Shown: positions 4,034-9,897 of the stretch, piece by piece
How positions within the stretch are numbered: position 1 is the first letter of the stretch
How the letters are laid out: each line of letters starts with the position of its first letter
Origin: Actinotalea sp.
GTDB lineage: Bacteria > Actinomycetota > Actinomycetes > Actinomycetales > Cellulomonadaceae
DNA length: 10,815 nucleotides
Direction of reading: 5' to 3'
NCBI GenBank assembly: GCA_014360395.1
Contig: JACIXM010000040.1
Location: 1-10,815, forward strand
Translations under genes and position numbers: made by a program
The notes under the pieces: generated by a model
Told to the model about the DNA's origin: nothing
Database searches by the model: none
What the model saw: only the letters and a program-made list of their open reading frames with translations

Positions 4034-4951
4034 TCAGGACCCGCCCGCACGCTCCACGAGGTCCAGCGCGAGGTCCAGGATCGGCGAGGAGTGGGTGAGC
4101 GCCCCGACCGACAGGTAGTCCACGCCCGTGGCGGCCACCTCGGCGGCCCGCTCCAGCGTGAGGTTCCCGGTGGCCTCCAGCTCCACCCGGTCCCCGCCCT
4201 CGCGGGCCCGGACCGCCTCGACGACCTCCCGCAGGACGGCCGGCGGCATGTTGTCCAGGAGCAGGAAGTCGGCCCCGACGTCCAGGGCCTGCAGCGCCTG
4301 CTCCGGGGTGTCCGCCTCGACCTGGATCGCGACGTCGGGGAAGCGCCGCCGGACCGCCTCCACCGCCGCGGCGACGGACCCGGCCGCCACGACGTGGTTG
4401 TCCTTGACCATCGCGACGTCGAACAGGCCCATCCGCTTGTTGGTGCCGCCGCCGCACCGCACGGCGTACTTCTCCAGCTCCCGCAGCCCGGGGGTGGTCT
4501 TGCGGGTGTCGAGCACCTGCGCGCCCGTGCCCGCCAGCGCGTCGGCCCAGCGTCGGGTGTGCGTGGCCACGCCGGAGGCCCGGCTGACGAGGTTGAGCAG
4601 GGTCCGCTCCCCCACGAGCAGGACCTGCACCGGGCCGCGCAGGACCGCGACGACGTCGCCGCGGGCGACCCGGGCGCCGTCGTCGGCGCGCTGGTCGACC
4701 ACGGGCACGGGCAGCCCGAGGCGCTCGGCGACCTGGGCGAGGACCTCCGCCACGACGGGCAGGCCGGCGACGACGCCGTCGGCACGGGCCACGAGGTGGG
4801 CGGTGCCGACCTCGTCGGGCGCGATCGTGGCCTGGGTGGTCACGTCGCGACCGGGCGCCGGCCCGAGGTCCTCCTCCAGCGCGACGCGCACGGTGCGCCG
4901 CGTCCAGGCACGGTCCAGCGGGGCGCCGGGGGCGGGGTCAGGGGTGTCCAC
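4034..4951 (-). CDS. nadC: Nicotinate-nucleotide pyrophosphorylase (quinolinate phosphoribosyltransferase)
   Basis: Converts quinolinate and PRPP to nicotinate mononucleotide with release of CO2 and pyrophosphate, in de novo NAD synthesis. With the GTG at 4951 it is 305 residues; a second GTG at 4957 would add two. Visible motifs are the RVALEEDLG lead-in of the N-terminal domain (22-30), DTRKTTPG (148-155), RCGGG (165-169), KDNH (183-186), and the barrel strands VEADTPEQA, ADFLLLDN, LEATGN and VDYLSVGALTHS. The usual NHR is NKR here (Lys172), a change at a substrate-binding position. It heads the nadC-lysS unit and is divergent from the sulfur cassette, with the first cassette operator about 30 bp upstream. 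Its usual partner nadB lies on the far side of that cassette. I see no strong ribosome-binding site. Confidence 0.95.
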   Translation of the reverse strand: MDTPDPAPGAPLDRAWTRRTVRVALEEDLGPAPGRDVTTQATIAPDEVGTAHLVARADGVVAGLPVVAEVLAQVAERLGLPVPVVDQRADDGARVARGDVVAVLRGPVQVLLVGERTLLNLVSRASGVATHTRRWADALAGTGAQVLDTRKTTPGLRELEKYAVRCGGGTNKRMGLFDVAMVKDNHVVAAGSVAAAVEAVRRRFPDVAIQVEADTPEQALQALDVGADFLLLDNMPPAVLREVVEAVRAREGGDRVELEATGNLTLERAAEVAATGVDYLSVGALTHSSPILDLALDLVERAGGS

Positions 4952-4980
4952 GCCCACACCGTACGGAGGGTGCCGAAGTG

Positions 4981-4999
4981 ATACCCCAGGGGGTATGCT
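4981..4999 (+). promoter_or_regulatory. CsoR/CstR-type operator O1 overlapping a -10 element, upstream of the rhodanese gene
   Basis: A perfect palindrome, ATACCCC-AG-GGGGTAT (4981-4996), has the form of known CsoR-family operators: a G/C tract flanked by ATAC/GTAT. Its right half runs into TATGCT (4994-4999), a TAnnnT -10-like hexamer for the plus-strand cassette. A bound repressor would therefore block the promoter. A near copy precedes the reductase gene. The site is also about 30 bp upstream of the nadC start on the other strand and could touch that promoter. The cognate repressor is encoded two genes downstream. Binding is inferred, not shown. Confidence 0.75.
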
Positions 5000-5057
5000 G
5001 AGACGCAGGCCGCCCCGCCGGCGGCACCCGATCCCCTGCTCCGGAAGGACCCGCCCG

Positions 5058-5408
5058 ATGCCCGGCTTCCTCGACCGCCTCCTGCGCCGCGACCCCGACG
5101 CCCTGCCCAAGACCGTCCGCGTCGACCAGGCCCTGGACCTGCTGGAGGAGGGCGCGGTCCTCGTCGACGTGCGCGAGAAGGACGAGTGGCGCACCGGCCA
5201 CGCGCCGCAGGCCCGGCACATCCCGCTCGGCCGGCTCCAGGCCGAGTCGCGCCGCCTGCCCCAGGAGGCGCCCGTCGTCGTCATGTGCGCCTCGGGCATG
5301 CGGTCGCGCGGCGCCGCCGCACAGCTGCGCGCGGCGGGGTACCGTGCCACCAGCCTCTCCGGTGGGCTCGCCGCGTGGCGCACGGCCGGAGGGCGCGTGA
5401 CGAGATGA
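5058..5408 (+). CDS. Single-domain rhodanese (sulfurtransferase)
   Basis: Transfers sulfane sulfur between low-molecular-weight or protein thiols through a cysteine persulfide. The 116 residues form one rhodanese domain: LVDVREKDEW (35-44), GHAPQARHIPL, then the active-site loop CASGMRS with the catalytic Cys77, and a C-terminal LSGGLAAW. A short basic N-terminus precedes the fold. There is no signal peptide, so it should be cytoplasmic. The ATG lies 8 bases after GGAAGGA, a good ribosome-binding sequence. It is the first gene of the cassette, directly after operator O1, and ends 14 bases before the repressor start. The context points to persulfide handling rather than cyanide detoxification or thiolation of a tRNA or cofactor. 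The physiological donor and acceptor are not known. Confidence 0.9.
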   Translation: MPGFLDRLLRRDPDALPKTVRVDQALDLLEEGAVLVDVREKDEWRTGHAPQARHIPLGRLQAESRRLPQEAPVVVMCASGMRSRGAAAQLRAAGYRATSLSGGLAAWRTAGGRVTR

Positions 5409-5422
5409 TGGAGGGCGCCCCC

Positions 5423-5686
5423 ATGCAGCTGGACCCGGAGGACATGACCGCGGTCATCAACCGTCTGCGCCGCGCCAACGGCCAGCTCAACGGGGTCATC
5501 AAGATGCTCGAGTCCGGCGCCGACTGCGCCGACGTCGTGACGCAGCTCTCCGCCGCCTCCAAGGCGCTGGACCGTGCCGGCTTCGCGATCATCGCCACCG
5601 GCCTGGAGCAGTGCCTGCTCGAGGGCGGCGAGGACGCCGAGGTCAACCGCACGAAGCTGCAGAAGCTCTTCCTCTCCCTCGCCTGA
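5423..5686 (+). CDS. CsoR-family (DUF156) repressor, CstR-like persulfide sensor
   Basis: Small all-helical homotetrameric repressor of the CsoR/RcnR/FrmR/CstR family. From the ATG at 5423, which is 7 bases after GGAGGG, the protein has 87 residues. ATGs at 5405 and 5408 would give 93 or 92. The family core is visible as INRLRRANGQLNGVIKMLE (12-30). The sensing cysteines are C35 and C64, 29 residues apart as in Mycobacterium tuberculosis CsoR (C36/C65) and Staphylococcus aureus CstR (C31/C60). The copper-ligand histidine four residues before the second cysteine is Gly60. The positions matching the second-shell Tyr and Glu of CsoR appear as Asp34 and Gln80. Loss of His argues against Cu(I), Ni/Co or formaldehyde sensing and for a di- or tetrasulfide switch. 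Neighbouring rhodaneses support this. Likely targets are O1 and O2. Confidence 0.88.
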   Translation: MQLDPEDMTAVINRLRRANGQLNGVIKMLESGADCADVVTQLSAASKALDRAGFAIIATGLEQCLLEGGEDAEVNRTKLQKLFLSLA

Positions 5687-5689
5687 CCC

Positions 5690-6292
5690 GTGGACCGCTC
5701 GGCCTGGGACGAGCGCTACCGCACGGACGACCCGTGGGGCAGCGCCCCGAACGCCTTCGTGCAGGAGGTCACGGAGCCGCTGGCGCCGGGCCGCGCCCTG
5801 GACGTCGCCGCCGGCGACGGGCGCCACACCCTCTGGCTGGCCCGCGGGGGCTGGGAGGTCGACGCCGTCGACTTCTCGGCCGTCGCGATGGCGCGCGGTG
5901 AGCACCTCGCCGCCGAGCAGGGCGTCGCCGCGCGCACGCACTGGCACGTGGCCGACGTCGTCGCCGAGCCCCTTCCCCCGGGGCCCTTCGACCTCGTGGT
6001 GGTCGCCTACCTCCAGCTGCCGCCGGCACCCCTCGCCGCCGCCCTCACCGCCGCGTGCGCGCGCGTGGCCGCCGGCGGCACCGCCGTCCTCGTCGGCCAC
6101 GACGTGAGCAACCTGCGCGACGGCGTCGGCGGGCCGCAGGACGCCACCGTGCTCTGGGCGGCCGACGACGTCGCCGCCGCGGCCCGCGAGGCCGGGCTCG
6201 CCGTGAGCGCGGCCACCGTGCGCGAGCGCGCCGTCCCGGGCGCGGACCGCCCCGCCCGCGACGCCGTCGTCGTCGCGCGGCGCCCGGCGTGA
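5690..6292 (+). CDS. Class I SAM-dependent methyltransferase, TehB/thiol-methyltransferase-like
   Basis: A 200-residue Rossmann-fold methyltransferase. Motif I is ALDVAAGDG (36-44), followed by RHTLWLA. The acidic end of strand 2 is VDAVDFS (Asp61), which should bind the SAM ribose. LVVVAYLQLPP occupies the motif IV region and is followed by AGGTAVLVGHD. The N-terminus WDERYRTDDPWG resembles those of TehB-like and thiopurine/thiol methyltransferases. There is no signal peptide or membrane span. It starts with GTG only 3 bases after the repressor stop and has no Shine-Dalgarno sequence, so translation is probably coupled. The substrate cannot be read from the sequence. Operon context suggests a thiol, sulfide or persulfide, or a chalcogen oxyanion such as tellurite. 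The N- and C-terminal boundaries look complete. Confidence 0.85.
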   Translation: MDRSAWDERYRTDDPWGSAPNAFVQEVTEPLAPGRALDVAAGDGRHTLWLARGGWEVDAVDFSAVAMARGEHLAAEQGVAARTHWHVADVVAEPLPPGPFDLVVVAYLQLPPAPLAAALTAACARVAAGGTAVLVGHDVSNLRDGVGGPQDATVLWAADDVAAAAREAGLAVSAATVRERAVPGADRPARDAVVVARRPA

Positions 6293-6296
6293 GCCG

Positions 6297-6312
6297 GGTC
6301 CCACCTGGGACC
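6297..6312. repeat. 16-bp palindrome just after the methyltransferase gene
   Basis: GGTCCCA-CC-TGGGACC is a perfect 7-2-7 inverted repeat starting 4 bases after the methyltransferase stop. Its centre is 33 bp, about three helical turns, from the centre of operator O2. It could be a short hairpin ending the upstream transcript (no T-tail follows) or an accessory protein-binding site. It lacks the ATAC/GTAT ends of O1 and O2. Confidence 0.45.
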
Positions 6313-6328
6313 TTCGACCCATCCCGTG

Positions 6329-6348
6329 CATACCCCCCTGGGTATGTT
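6329..6348 (+). promoter_or_regulatory. CsoR/CstR-type operator O2 overlapping a -10 element, upstream of the persulfide reductase gene
   Basis: The inverted repeat CATACCC-CCCT-GGGTATG (6329-6346) is nearly the same as O1. As in O1, its right half merges into a TAnnnT hexamer, here TATGTT (6343-6348), placing a start site near 6355 and a leader of about 50 bases, as in the first unit. The duplicated geometry makes chance unlikely and implies that the reductase has its own promoter under the same repressor. No clear -35 hexamer is visible at 17 bp. Confidence 0.75.
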
Positions 6349-6404
6349 GCTCCTGCTGCCCGACGCCGTGCGCACCCCTTCACCCGACCAGCAGAGGACC
6401 TGTC

Positions 6405-8141
6405 ATGAAGATCGTCATCGTCGGTGGTGTCGCGGGCGGCATGAGCGCCGCGGCCCGGGCCCGGCGCCTGCGCGAGGACGCCGAGATCGTCGTCCTCGAG
6501 CGCGGCGAGTTCGTCTCGTTCGCCAACTGCGGGCTGCCGTACCACGTGGGTGACGAGATCCCGGACCGGTCCGCCCTCCTGCTGCAGACGCCGGAGTCCC
6601 TGGCCGCCTCCCTCGACCTGGACGTGCGCATGCGGCACGAGGTGACGGGGATCGACCGCGAACGCCGGCAGGTGCACGTGCGCCGCCTCGACGGCGGCGA
6701 CGACAGCCCGCTCACGCTCGACTACGACGCGCTGGTCCTCGCGCCGGGCGCCGTCGCGCTCCGGCCGCCGATCGACGGGCTGGACCTGCCGCAGGTGCAG
6801 ACGCTGCGCACCGTCCCCGACGCCGACCGCGTCCGGGCCCTCGTCGCCGGCGGTGCCCGCCGCGCGGTCGTCCTCGGCGCCGGCTTCATCGGCATCGAGG
6901 CCGCCGAGGCGCTGCGCGAGCGCGGCCTGGACGTGCACCTGGTCGACCTCGCCGACCACGTCCTGCCCCCGCTGGACCCGGAGCTGGCCAGCCTGCTCGA
7001 CGCGGAGCTGCGCGCGCACGGCGTCGTCACGCACGTCGGCGTCGCGGCAGAGGCGATCACCAGGACCGGCCCCGTCGCGGACGAGGTCGACGTCCAGGAC
7101 GGCGCGCTGGCGGCCCCGGCCGAGGGTGGGCCCGTCGTCGTCCGCCTGTCCGACGGCACGGCGCTGCCCGCCGACGTCGTCGTCCTCTCCGTCGGCGTGC
7201 GGCCCGACAGCCGGCTCGCCGAGGAGGCCGGCCTGGAGCTGGGCCGCGGCGGTGCGATCGTCGTCGACGACGAGCAGCGGACCTCGGACCCGCACATCTG
7301 GGCGGTCGGCGACGCGACCGCGGTGCGGCACGCCGTCACCGGCGTCGTGGCCCCCGTGCCCCTGGCCGGGCCGGCGAACCGGGCAGGGCGCCGCGCCGCG
7401 GACTCGATCCTCGGCCGCCTCACCGACGCCGGCCGTGCCCGGCCCGTCCTGGGGACCGCGGTGGTGCGCGTGTTCGGCCTGACCGCCGCGGTGACGGGCG
7501 CCGGCCACGAGGCGCTGGAGCGGGCCGGCATCCCCCACCACGTCGTGCACGTCCACCCCGGGCACCATGCCGGGTACTTCCCCGGCGCCCAGCAGGTGCA
7601 CCTGCTCCTCACGTTCGCGCCCGACGGCAGGCTGCTCGGCGCCCAGGCCGTCGGCCGCGCCGGGGTGGAGAAGCGCATCGACGTCCTGGCGACCGCGCTG
7701 GCCGCCGGGATGACCGTCGACGACGTCGCCGAGCTCGAGCTGTCCTACGCCCCGCCGTACGGCTCGGCCAAGGACCCGGTGAACATGGCCGGCTTCGTCG
7801 CCCAGAACGTCCTCGGCGGCGAGCTGCGCCTGTGGTATCCCGACGAGCTGGGCACCGTCCTGGAGGAGGCGCTGGTCCTGGACGTCCGCACGGGCACGGA
7901 GTTCCGCGGCGGGCACCTGCCCGGGGCCCTCAACGTCCCCCACACCCAGCTGCGGGCGCGCCTGGACGAGGTCCGCGAGGCCGCGGCCGGGCGGCCCGTG
8001 CGGGTGCACTGCCAGAGCGGCTTCCGCTCCTACCTCGCCCACCGCGTGCTCGTGCAGGCCGGCCTGGACAGCTCGATGCTCTCCGGCGGCATGCTGACGC
8101 TGCGCGCGGCCCTGCCCGACCTCGCGCTCGAGCGCGACTGA
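6405..8141 (+). CDS. CoA-disulfide / persulfide reductase fused to C-terminal rhodanese
   Basis: FAD- and NAD(P)H-dependent single-cysteine disulfide reductase joined to a rhodanese domain. It is related to CoADR-RHD of Bacillus and the NADH-dependent persulfide reductase Npsr of Shewanella, which reduce CoA disulfide or persulfides and polysulfides, releasing H2S. In the 578 residues I see the FAD-binding VIVGGVAGGMSAA (4-16), the catalytic SFANCGLPYH with Cys42, the NAD(P)H-site VVLGAGFIGIEAAEAL, a second FAD motif WAVGDAT, and a dimerisation domain with the tyrosine motifs GYFPGAQQ and YAPPYGSAKDPVN. The rhodanese occupies about 480-578, with LVLDVRTGTEF and active-site CQSGFRS (Cys536). 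AGAGGA lies 6 bases before the ATG. It has its own promoter/operator O2. The organism probably makes mycothiol, so the true substrate may be CoA or a persulfide of another thiol. Confidence 0.94.
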   Translation: MKIVIVGGVAGGMSAAARARRLREDAEIVVLERGEFVSFANCGLPYHVGDEIPDRSALLLQTPESLAASLDLDVRMRHEVTGIDRERRQVHVRRLDGGDDSPLTLDYDALVLAPGAVALRPPIDGLDLPQVQTLRTVPDADRVRALVAGGARRAVVLGAGFIGIEAAEALRERGLDVHLVDLADHVLPPLDPELASLLDAELRAHGVVTHVGVAAEAITRTGPVADEVDVQDGALAAPAEGGPVVVRLSDGTALPADVVVLSVGVRPDSRLAEEAGLELGRGGAIVVDDEQRTSDPHIWAVGDATAVRHAVTGVVAPVPLAGPANRAGRRAADSILGRLTDAGRARPVLGTAVVRVFGLTAAVTGAGHEALERAGIPHHVVHVHPGHHAGYFPGAQQVHLLLTFAPDGRLLGAQAVGRAGVEKRIDVLATALAAGMTVDDVAELELSYAPPYGSAKDPVNMAGFVAQNVLGGELRLWYPDELGTVLEEALVLDVRTGTEFRGGHLPGALNVPHTQLRARLDEVREAAAGRPVRVHCQSGFRSYLAHRVLVQAGLDSSMLSGGMLTLRAALPDLALERD

Positions 8142-8164: not shown

Positions 8165-8204
8165 GCTGAGCCCGACGACGGCCGCGGGAGCCGTCGGGCT
8201 CAGC
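8165..8204. terminator. Shared hairpin terminator between the reductase gene and nadB
   Basis: A 13-bp perfect stem (GCTGAGCCCGACG / CGTCGGGCTCAGC) encloses a 14-base loop in the 58-bp convergent gap. It begins 23 bases after the reductase stop. Its right arm contains the nadB stop codon (8200-8202), so the nadB C-terminal codons and the terminator use the same bases. There is no T-tract on either strand. A bidirectional terminator role is inferred from the position. Confidence 0.6.
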
Positions 8205-9897
8205 CGATCGGGCCCGGGAGCGTCAGCGGGCCGTCGCGCCAGGTCAGGGCGCCGTCGGCGGACAGCTCGCCGACGAGGCGACGGGACCACGCGGCGTCGT
8301 CGGACGCCGGGAAGTCCTCCCGGAAGTGCCCGCCGCGGGACTCGGTACGCAGGGCCGCGGCCTCGGTGAGCAGAGCCGCGACCTGGTGCAGGTTGGTCGT
8401 CTCCCACTCGGCCACCTGCGGCGCCGCGACGACACCGGGCACGACGTCGGCGCGGGTGGGGATCGCGGCGAGGCCCTGCGCCGCGGTGGCGAGCGCGGGC
8501 GCGGTGCGGATGACGCCCGGCCCGCTCTGCGCGAGCCGCTGCACCCGCGAGCGCACGGTGGCCGCGACGAGCGCGGGTTCGCCGGGCCGCTCGACGGGCT
8601 CGCGCTGCGGCACGCCGCCCACGTGGCGGGCGATGCGCTCGGCGGCCCGGTGGCCGAAGACGAGGCCCTCCAGGAGAGAGTTGGACGCCAGCCGGTTCGC
8701 CCCGTGCACCCCGGTGCACGCCACCTCCCCCGCGGCGTAGAGCCCGGCCAGGGTGGTGCGGCCGTCGAGGTCGGTGAGGACCCCGCCGGAGTGGTAGTGC
8801 TGGGCGGGCGCGACCGGTACGAGGTCCGTGGTCAGGTCGATGCCCTCGGTGAGCAGCCGCTCGTGGATGGTCGGGAAGCGGGCGCGCAGGAAGTCCGCAC
8901 CCAGGTGCCGGGCGTCGAGGAAGACGTGGTCGGAGCCGGTCAGGGCCATGCGCCGCACGATCGCGTGGGCGACGACGTCCCGGGGCGCGAGCTCGGCGAG
9001 CGGGTGCACGGCCGGCATGAACCGGACGCCGTCGGTGTCCAGCAGGAGCGCGCCCTCCCCGCGGACCGCCTCCGAGACGAGCGGGAGCTGGCCCTTGACG
9101 CCCGCGCCGAGCCACAGGACGGTCGGGTGGAACTGGACGAACTCGACGTCGGCGACCGCGGCGCCGGCGCGCAGGGCGGCCGCGAGACCGTCGCCGGTCG
9201 CCTGGGCGGGGTTCGTCGAGGACGCGTAGACCTGCCCGATGCCACCGGTGGCCAGGACGACCGCCCGGCCGAGCGCCGCGCCGACGCCGTCGCGGGTGCC
9301 CTCGCCGATGACGTGCAGCGTCACCCCGCACGCCGGGCCGGGCCGCCCGTCGGCGTCGGGTGCGGCGGTGAGGACGTCGAGCACCAGAGCGTGCTCGATC
9401 ACGTCGATGCCCGGGTCGGCCCGCACCGCCTCGAGCTGCGCCACGAGCGCCCGGGTGATCTCCGCGCCGGTCGCGTCCCCGCCGGCATGGGCGATGCGGT
9501 CCGCGCCGTGGCCGCCCTCGCGGGTCAGGGCGATCCGCCCGTCCGGCTCGGTGTCGAAGCGTGCACCGGCCGCGACGAGCTCGTGGACCCGCAGCGGGCC
9601 CTCCTGGACGAGGACGTCGACCGCGGCCGGGTCGCACAGACCCACCCCGGCGGTGAGGGTGTCGGCGCGGTGCGCCTGCGGGGAGTCCTCCGGGTCCAGC
9701 GCGGCGGCGATCCCGCCCTGCGCCCAGACCGTGGAGCCGGACGCGACCTCACCCTTGGTCACCAGGAGCACCCGGTCCACCCGCCGACGCAGCCGCAGCG
9801 CCGCGGTGAGCCCGGCGATCCCCGAACCCACGACGACGACGTCGGCGCTCGCCACCCAGCCCGGCTCCGGGGCCGCCAGGCGCCGGGGGAACCTCAC
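8200..9897 (-). CDS. nadB: L-aspartate oxidase
   Basis: FAD enzyme that oxidises L-aspartate to iminoaspartate, the first step of de novo NAD synthesis, which NadA then condenses to quinolinate. The 565 residues fit the family. Visible are the FAD dinucleotide fold [10 protein letters not shown] (21-30), [14 protein letters not shown] (53-66), [27 protein letters not shown], the substrate-site region VEFVQFHPT, the capping-domain segments ending at [10 protein letters not shown], and the FAD site [13 protein letters not shown] followed by [11 protein letters not shown] succinate dehydrogenase-like helical C-terminal domain follows. The AQHYHSGG and missing covalent-FAD context favour NadB over SdhA/FrdA. 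The GTG start overlaps the panD stop (GTGA), indicating translational coupling; the Shine-Dalgarno sequence is weak. nadA is not in the window. Confidence 0.95.

What the first reader, a model, noticed from the sequence alone, without database searches (positions are those of the whole stretch)
4981..8141. Self-contained persulfide-response regulon with an unusual gene set
Four genes on one strand share a theme: rhodanese, a CsoR-family repressor lacking its copper histidine, a SAM methyltransferase, and a CoA-disulfide/persulfide reductase-rhodanese fusion. Two matching operators precede the two transcription units. The best-known cst operon (Staphylococcus aureus: cstR, tauE, cstA, cstB, sqr) uses a persulfide dioxygenase and sulfide:quinone reductase. 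Neither is seen here; this locus would reduce persulfides with NAD(P)H and perhaps methylate the product. It may be a distinct actinobacterial version of reactive-sulfur defence.
Basis: partly seen in the sequence, partly recalled or inferred. Interest (0 to 1): 0.8.

Follow-up and report, generated by a model that had tools for sequence, protein, structure and literature searches.

The report
Persulfide-sensing operon with a methyltransferase
This stretch carries genes that probably let a bacterium sense toxic reactive sulfur and chemically reduce it, a known kind of system, plus a methyl-transferring enzyme that recurs beside the same sensor in several related lineages and may turn surplus sulfide into a volatile gas.

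Summary
Rhodanese (5058-5408), a CsoR-family repressor with the CstR two-cysteine pattern (5423-5686), a class I methyltransferase (5690-6292) and a CoA-persulfide-reductase-like/rhodanese fusion (6405-8141) lie on one strand. A perfect ATACCC-N4-GGGTAT operator precedes each presumed transcription unit, the type bound by the sulfane-sulfur sensor ScCsoR of Streptomyces coelicolor. The genome has a separate copper-type CsoR locus.

Two claims fail. It is not self-contained: further sites precede a lipoprotein-like rhodanese, thioredoxin-DUF302, DUF4395 and (weakly) a type III sulfide:quinone reductase on other contigs. And CstR plus reductase is not unusual: Enterococcus faecalis has it, and 37 of the 45 order-level genomes with the reductase (149 searched) carry it within 5 kb of a CstR-like gene. 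No persulfide dioxygenase was found.

What seems unreported is the methyltransferase. Of the 80 closest loci kept from a genome scan, 26 hold a CstR gene (about 0.14 expected), in several actinobacterial families and beside both dioxygenase- and reductase-type clusters. In an even phylum sample, however, only 3 of 35 genomes with the family show it within 5 kb. Likeliest reading: persulfide-induced reduction to sulfide, with S-methylation as an added outlet; the methyl acceptor is inferred, not shown.

The parts
4981..4996 (.). Operator 1, ATACCCCAGGGGGTAT, 61 bases upstream of the rhodanese start
   Evidence: Perfect ATACCCNNNNGGGTAT; fits ATACCn6GGTAT bound by S. coelicolor ScCsoR (PMC7533328); a site also precedes the orthologous unit in L017 and L018
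5058..5408 (+). Single-domain rhodanese, 116 aa, Cys77 in a CASGMRS loop
   Evidence: PF00581 67.8 bits; only cysteine is residue 77
5423..5686 (+). CstR-type CsoR-family repressor, 87 aa, Cys35 and Cys64, Gly60 in place of the Cu(I) histidine
   Evidence: PF02583 78.4 bits; best solved relative 7mq1, aligned at both cysteines; 76% and 72% identical repressors in G030 and G012
5690..6292 (+). Class I SAM-dependent methyltransferase, 200 aa, GTG start 3 bases after the cstR stop
   Evidence: PF13649 50.4 bits; model pLDDT 94.9; closest folds Slr1183, Rv0560c, TehB, halide methyltransferases among others
6330..6345 (.). Operator 2, ATACCCCCCTGGGTAT, 59 bases upstream of the reductase start
   Evidence: Perfect ATACCCNNNNGGGTAT; a site also precedes the reductase in L017 and L018
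6405..8141 (+). CoA-persulfide-reductase-like protein, 578 aa: CoA-disulfide-reductase core (Cys42) fused to C-terminal rhodanese (Cys536)
   Evidence: E 1.6e-143 to E. faecalis CoAPR 8a56, E 7.5e-146 to 3nta; both catalytic cysteines aligned; domains

Best explanation
The locus is the core of a CstR regulon for reactive sulfur with a reductive outlet. In its reduced form the repressor (5423) sits on the two ATACCC-N4-GGGTAT operators and keeps rhodanese-cstR-methyltransferase and the reductase low. When persulfide or polysulfide rises, Cys35 and Cys64 react, the repressor leaves DNA, and the genes come on. The rhodanese collects sulfane sulfur. The reductase-rhodanese fusion takes it as CoA persulfide and reduces it with NAD(P)H to CoA and H2S. 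Thioredoxin-DUF302, a lipoprotein-like rhodanese and probably a DUF4395 membrane protein are induced in parallel through the same operator elsewhere in the genome. The methyltransferase most likely S-methylates the H2S (or a small thiol or persulfide) left by reduction, giving methanethiol or dimethyl sulfide that can leave the cell. Shown here: genes, active-site cysteines, operators, dispersed sites, recurring neighbourhoods, separate copper-type repressor. Inferred from characterised relatives: sensing chemistry and reductase activity. Inferred from context only: what the methyltransferase methylates.
For: Operators and genome census: the four perfect sites lie before this operon, before the reductase, at a lipoprotein-like rhodanese (C21) and before thioredoxin-DUF302 (C384). 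Repressor with both CstR cysteines and no copper histidine; a second, copper-type CsoR at C266 followed by a heavy-metal-binding protein and a P-type-ATPase-like frame. Reductase aligned with E. faecalis CoAPR at both catalytic cysteines. Reductase within 5 kb of a CstR-like gene in 37 of 45 genomes, own included. Repressor-MT-reductase with operators repeated in G030 and G012. MT relatives with CstR in 26 of 80 named loci against about 0.14 expected from CstR density in the order. Precedents: ScCsoR (PMC7533328), E. faecalis CstR-CoAPR (PMC9405070), H2S-induced H2S/MeSH methyltransferases of Actinomycetota (PMC12904073).
Against: No expression or binding data. In an even sample of the phylum only 3 of 35 genomes with the MT family, the window's own included, have a CstR-like gene within 5 kb (read from the two tables), and 1 of 27 newly fetched loci has an operator. 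In the order, the 26 weaker MT matches fetched have no CstR and no exact operator within 1.5 kb. The repressor's best solved relative, 7mq1, is labelled a copper-sensing repressor in the PDB (that it is a CstR is recalled). The reductase scores below the CoA-disulfide-reductase equivalog cut-off (399.9 of 578.8 bits). In 60 genomes of the genus of G185 (Mycobacterium, inferred through) only 2 have an MT match near E 1e-29, which fits poorly with this being the MddM1 described as common there.
Confidence: 0.75

Rival explanations
1. The methyltransferase is a chalcogen-oxyanion methyltransferase (TehB-like, for tellurite or selenite) that merely shares a redox-stress operon.
For: TehB is among the nearest solved folds (4dq0, 2xva) and PF03848 TehB passes its cut-off (25.5 of 20.4 bits).
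Against: NCBIfam TehB equivalogs score far below cut-off (38.2 of 218 bits). TehB folds rank below Slr1183 and Rv0560c and beside many other methyltransferases. Its recurrent neighbours are sulfur genes.
Confidence: 0.12
2. The methyltransferase acts on another acceptor, such as a cofactor, RNA or a metabolite damaged by reactive sulfur, and is not a sulfur S-methyltransferase.
Against: CstR linkage in several separate lineages and small-thiol methyltransferase precedents in the same phylum.
Confidence: 0.3
3. The repressor is a copper sensor and the locus is a copper-stress operon.
For: Same Pfam family as CsoR; the RicR model matches weakly and the best solved relative is labelled copper-sensing; the operator resembles CsoR/RicR sites.
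Against: No copper histidine, CstR-like cysteine pair, sulfur genes only, and a copper-type CsoR locus on C266.
Confidence: 0.03
4. The system is mainly an oxidative sulfide pathway: SQR elsewhere in the genome makes persulfide, and this locus supplies sulfur to DsrC/DsrE2-type carriers rather than reducing persulfide.
For: Type III SQR followed by DsrC-like and DsrE2-like genes at C377, with a 2-mismatch operator-like site upstream.
Against: No PDO found; the reductase is the gene directly behind operator 2; the C377 site is weak.
Confidence: 0.15

Closest known systems
Enterococcus faecalis cst-like operon (CstR, RhdA, RhdB, CoAPR)
   Same: CstR controls two rhodaneses and the CoA-persulfide reductase; no SQR or PDO is named among its genes in the passages read (PMC9405070)
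   Different: No methyltransferase ('methyltransferase' occurs 0 times in that text); different phylum; this genome also holds an SQR on another contig
Streptomyces coelicolor ScCsoR sulfane-sulfur circuit (SCO0618 PDO, SCO0620 CsoR, with rhodanese and TauE)
   Same: Same repressor type (Cys37/Cys66, spacing 29 as here) and same operator ATACCn6GGTAT (PMC7533328, passages)
   Different: Uses a PDO and a sulfite transporter; 'methyltransferase' and 'CoA' do not occur in its text
Staphylococcus aureus cst operon (cstR-tauE-cstA-cstB-sqr)
   Same: Repressor family and sulfur-stress role
   Different: Dioxygenase and SQR in the operon (gene list from the finding and recalled); not here
MddM1/MddM2 H2S and methanethiol S-methyltransferases of Actinomycetota
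   Same: About 200-aa SAM enzymes of the same phylum; MddM1 predicted cytoplasmic, transcription raised by H2S (PMC12904073, abstract and sections 7-10, 12, 31 read)
   Different: Reference sequences not available here, so membership untested; CsoR, rhodanese, operon and gene cluster do not occur in that text
Thermus thermophilus TTHA1953 regulon
   Same: CstR-like repressor with a methyltransferase and a thioredoxin among the genes behind its sites (PMC10318464, sections 7, 8 and passages)
   Different: Controls Sox genes; the methyltransferase (TTHA1729 by elimination) rose only about 1.5-fold in the mutant; whether it is related to the one here was not tested

Membership tests
CstR (persulfide-sensing CsoR family) | DUF156/Trns_repr_metal family | tested here: met
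   PF02583 78.4 bits, cut-off 22.8
CstR (persulfide-sensing CsoR family) | Two conserved cysteines, 29 residues apart in ScCsoR (Cys37/Cys66) | tested here: met
   Cys35 and Cys64, the only cysteines; both aligned to cysteines of 7mq1
CstR (persulfide-sensing CsoR family) | No Cu(I)-binding histidine | tested here: met
   Gly60 at the position of the 2hh7 histidine (role of that histidine recalled)
CstR (persulfide-sensing CsoR family) | Derepression by persulfide/polysulfide | not testable with these tools
   needs binding or transcript data
CoA-persulfide reductase (CoAPR) | CoA-disulfide-reductase core fused to C-terminal rhodanese | tested here: met
   domains; residues 2-572 aligned to 8a56
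CoA-persulfide reductase (CoAPR) | Both catalytic cysteines (C42, C508 in E. faecalis) | tested here: met
   Cys42 and Cys536 aligned to cysteines of 8a56
CoA-persulfide reductase (CoAPR) | NAD(P)H-dependent reduction of CoASSH | not testable with these tools
   biochemical
CoA-disulfide reductase equivalog TIGR03385 | Score above curated cut-off | tested here: not met
   399.9 of 578.8 bits
Canonical S. aureus-type cst operon | Persulfide dioxygenase and SQR in the operon | tested here: not met
   absent from the window's gene list; SQR on another contig, no PDO found
MddM1 | At least 40% identity over 70% to M. poriferae MddM1 (criterion of PMC12904073) | not testable with these tools
   sequence PP661493 not held
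MddM1 | Common in Mycobacterium/Mycolicibacterium | tested here: inconclusive
   57 of 60 genomes match at E <= 1e-8, but only 2 near E 1e-29; the rest are weaker and often cover about 100-140 of 200 residues
MddM1 | S-methylates H2S and MeSH | not testable with these tools
   biochemical
TehB tellurite methyltransferase | NCBIfam equivalog cut-off | tested here: not met
   PRK11207 38.2 of 218 bits; TIGR00477 30.1 of 219.5
Copper CsoR | Cys-His-Cys copper site | tested here: not met
   Gly60 for His; the C266 repressor of the same genome keeps a His four residues before its second Cys

The most novel reading that the evidence does not exclude
In several actinobacterial lineages the persulfide sensor CstR directly controls a sulfide/small-thiol S-methyltransferase. 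A persulfide burst is first reduced (or oxidised), and the surplus sulfide is methylated and released as methanethiol or dimethyl sulfide. Dimethyl sulfide from these bacteria would then be an output of the reactive-sulfur response, with CstR as the regulator of an S-methylation arm for which the paper found on such enzymes names none.
Probability: 0.4. Interest if true: 0.7.

Novelty: new variant of a known kind. Interest (0 to 1): 0.45.

Why it matters
In the papers read here, bacterial reactive-sulfur defence is oxidation (SQR, PDO) or reduction (CoAPR). A methylation arm under the same sensor would be a third outlet and would tie volatile sulfur emission to a defined sensor and operator. 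In the 34 CstR-chosen neighbourhoods examined, PDO and CoAPR look like alternatives: 15 with PDO, 8 with CoAPR, 0 with both, 11 with neither (hypergeometric 0.004; loci not independent, 5 of 34 cut short by contig ends). The methyltransferase occurs beside either. The prediction is directly testable in ordinary soil actinomycetes and in E. coli.

Tried and rejected
Copper regulon: rejected (no copper histidine; separate copper-type locus). Self-contained locus: rejected. Genome without SQR: rejected (type III SQR, NF049943 600.3 bits over cut-off 525). PDO on another contig: a search with a Streptomyces PDO-rhodanese gave a glyoxalase-II-like MBL protein (GloB model 68.6 of 200.8 bits, Blh dioxygenase model 21 of 625), rhodanese domains and one further weak hit (C205, E 3e-5, not examined). 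So no convincing PDO in a 95.66% complete assembly; absence is provisional.

Operator overlapping a -10 element (TATnnT): 43 of 104 operators with a downstream gene against 23 of 86 on the other side (p 0.046). Too weak to use. One-mismatch sites at C51 and C461 were looked at and not used: C461 lies inside an ORF, C51 near genes without a clear sulfur link. The remaining 2-mismatch sites (L008-L012, L014, L015 and two without a locus) were not examined.

Tree of 107 methyltransferases: the CstR/operator-linked label needs 16 changes (shuffled mean 28.4, 0 of 500 as low), and the window sits in a supported clade of 4 rows, all linked. So linkage is clustered but was gained or lost often; the bootstrap had not settled. 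Labels of L020, L021 and L023 came from 3.6-kb loci and were 'unlinked'; wider coordinates show a CstR gene about 2.2-2.4 kb away for L021 and L023. L116 is the same contig as G030's, so it must not be counted as a separate genome.

MddM1 membership could not be tested (no sequence). The fold search does not discriminate function. Promoter/terminator scan found nothing.
Full report
WHAT IS THERE. Rhodanese, repressor and methyltransferase are separated by 14 and 3 bases and so look like one transcription unit behind operator 1. The reductase follows 112 bases later with its own operator 59 bases before its start. Flanking genes are unrelated metabolism on the other strand: nadC, a class II tRNA synthetase and an Lsr2-like gene on one side, nadB and an aspartate decarboxylase gene on the other.

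THE SENSOR. The repressor belongs to the CsoR family (PF02583). Its best solved relative is 7mq1, with which it aligns at both cysteines; the PDB labels that chain copper-sensing, and that it is a pneumococcal CstR is recalled. Against M. tuberculosis CsoR (2hh7) the histidine between the cysteines is Gly60. S. coelicolor ScCsoR, which releases DNA on polysulfide, has the same two cysteines 29 residues apart and binds ATACCn6GGTAT (PMC7533328; passages). Both window operators fit that motif exactly. The same genome has a second CsoR-family gene on contig C266 that keeps the histidine, followed by a heavy-metal-binding domain protein and a P-type-ATPase-like frame (the ATPase was read by eye).

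THE REGULON IS DISPERSED. In the 2.84-Mb assembly (545 contigs, 95.66% complete) the pattern ATACCCNNNNGGGTAT with up to 2 mismatches has 17 places, its reversed control none. Four are perfect: the two in the window; C21, overlapping the start of a rhodanese with a lipoprotein-type signal (signal judged by eye); and C384, upstream of thioredoxin and a DUF302 protein. A one-mismatch site lies just before a DUF4395 membrane protein (C185). A two-mismatch site lies upstream of a type III SQR followed by DsrC-like and DsrE2-like genes (C377; the DsrE2 equivalog is below its cut-off, 90.6 of 210 bits, the Pfam family above). No convincing PDO was found.

THE REDUCTASE. It aligns over its length with E. 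faecalis CoAPR (8a56) and with 3nta, keeping both catalytic cysteines as Cys42 and Cys536. CstR control of rhodaneses and CoAPR is published for E. faecalis (PMC9405070, passages). Among 149 genomes of the order, 45 have the reductase at E <= 1e-80. In 37 of these a copy lies within 5 kb of a CstR-like gene, counting 87 CstR-like places, the rows down to E 5.6e-15; weaker rows, which I took for copper-type members without checking each, were left out. So this pair is common. Of the 87 CstR-like places I read 34 neighbourhoods, mostly the best-scoring: 15 have PDO, 8 the reductase, none both, 11 neither; 30 of 34 hold an operator with at most one mismatch.

THE METHYLTRANSFERASE. In the order the best matches after the window itself are G030 (59%), G012 (53%) and G001 (54%). 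G030 and G012 repeat repressor-methyltransferase-reductase with operators, G030 with the rhodanese too; G001 has an operator and a divergent rhodanese. The 26 weaker matches fetched have no CstR and no exact operator within 1.5 kb, though wider coordinates put a CstR gene 2.2-2.4 kb away in G049 and G093. Of these 80 loci 26 hold a CstR gene, 16 within 1.5 kb and 8 within 300 bases; 27 hold an operator with at most one mismatch. Of the 26, 14 also hold a PDO, 2 the reductase and 10 neither; 15 of the 80 loci are shorter than 9 kb, and L116 is G030's own contig. About 0.14 loci with CstR would be expected from CstR density in the order, assuming 3.7-Mb genomes. Linked loci include Micromonospora (CstR-PDO-rhodanese-TauE-MT in one direction), Streptomyces, Phycicoccus and Ornithinibacter (thioredoxin-CstR-MT), Paenarthrobacter (thioredoxin | operator | MT | operator | rhodanese-CstR), Nocardioides, Acidimicrobiia and a Dormiibacterota MAG, the last three types not all with operators. 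The full set of repressor, methyltransferase and reductase was seen in four genomes: the window's, G030, G012 and the MAG of L181.

AGAINST. In an even draw of 296 Actinomycetota genomes 35 have the family at E <= 1e-25. Only 3 of these 35 (the window's, G315, G316) have a CstR-like gene within 5 kb (read from the tables), and 1 of 27 newly fetched loci has an operator. The tie is real but belongs to some lineages.

IN PRINT. Searches for a CstR/CsoR-methyltransferase link were. One search found nothing. One search gave PMC8557817 (passages; no such link). One search gave PMC12423496, seen in the listing only, on ArsR-type repressors. One search gave PMC10318464, where a methyltransferase is among the genes behind sites of a Thermus CstR-like repressor. 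The library holds open-licence papers only, so 'unreported' means within it.

VERDICT. A CstR regulon with a reductive outlet, ordinary in its core and well explained by E. faecalis and S. coelicolor, dispersed rather than self-contained, with a methyltransferase whose recurrent place in CstR clusters appears unreported in the library searched. New variant of a known kind.

Noticed in passing
window 4034-4954 and 8200-9897: The sulfur genes sit between nadC and nadB, both on the - strand, genes that often neighbour each other (recalled); the block may be an insertion there.
   Followed up: no
window 5423-8141: Best matches of repressor, methyltransferase and reductase are in another family of the order (f12: G030, G012), not in the window's own family f1, whose 10 other sampled genomes have no MT match better than about E 4e-27: horizontal transfer or a binning question.
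   Followed up: partly
L248 4229-4882 and 6241-6507 (G294, same genus as G185): A different methyltransferase-like ORF lies about 1.4 kb from a CstR-DUF302 pair with two perfect operators nearby; possibly another methyltransferase type in CstR regulons.
   Followed up: no
L214 (C384), L094 5292-6059, L106 5213-6000: Thioredoxin-DUF302 pairs recur behind CstR-type operators; DUF302, without assigned function, looks like a standing member of the persulfide regulon.
   Followed up: partly
L120 6643-7653 and 13 other loci: A zinc alcohol-dehydrogenase-like gene is found in 14 of the loci clustered (one member checked by Pfam); reason unknown.
   Followed up: no
L217 1167-1823 (C185): DUF4395 membrane protein (83.3 bits) directly behind a one-mismatch operator; candidate further regulon member.
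   Followed up: partly
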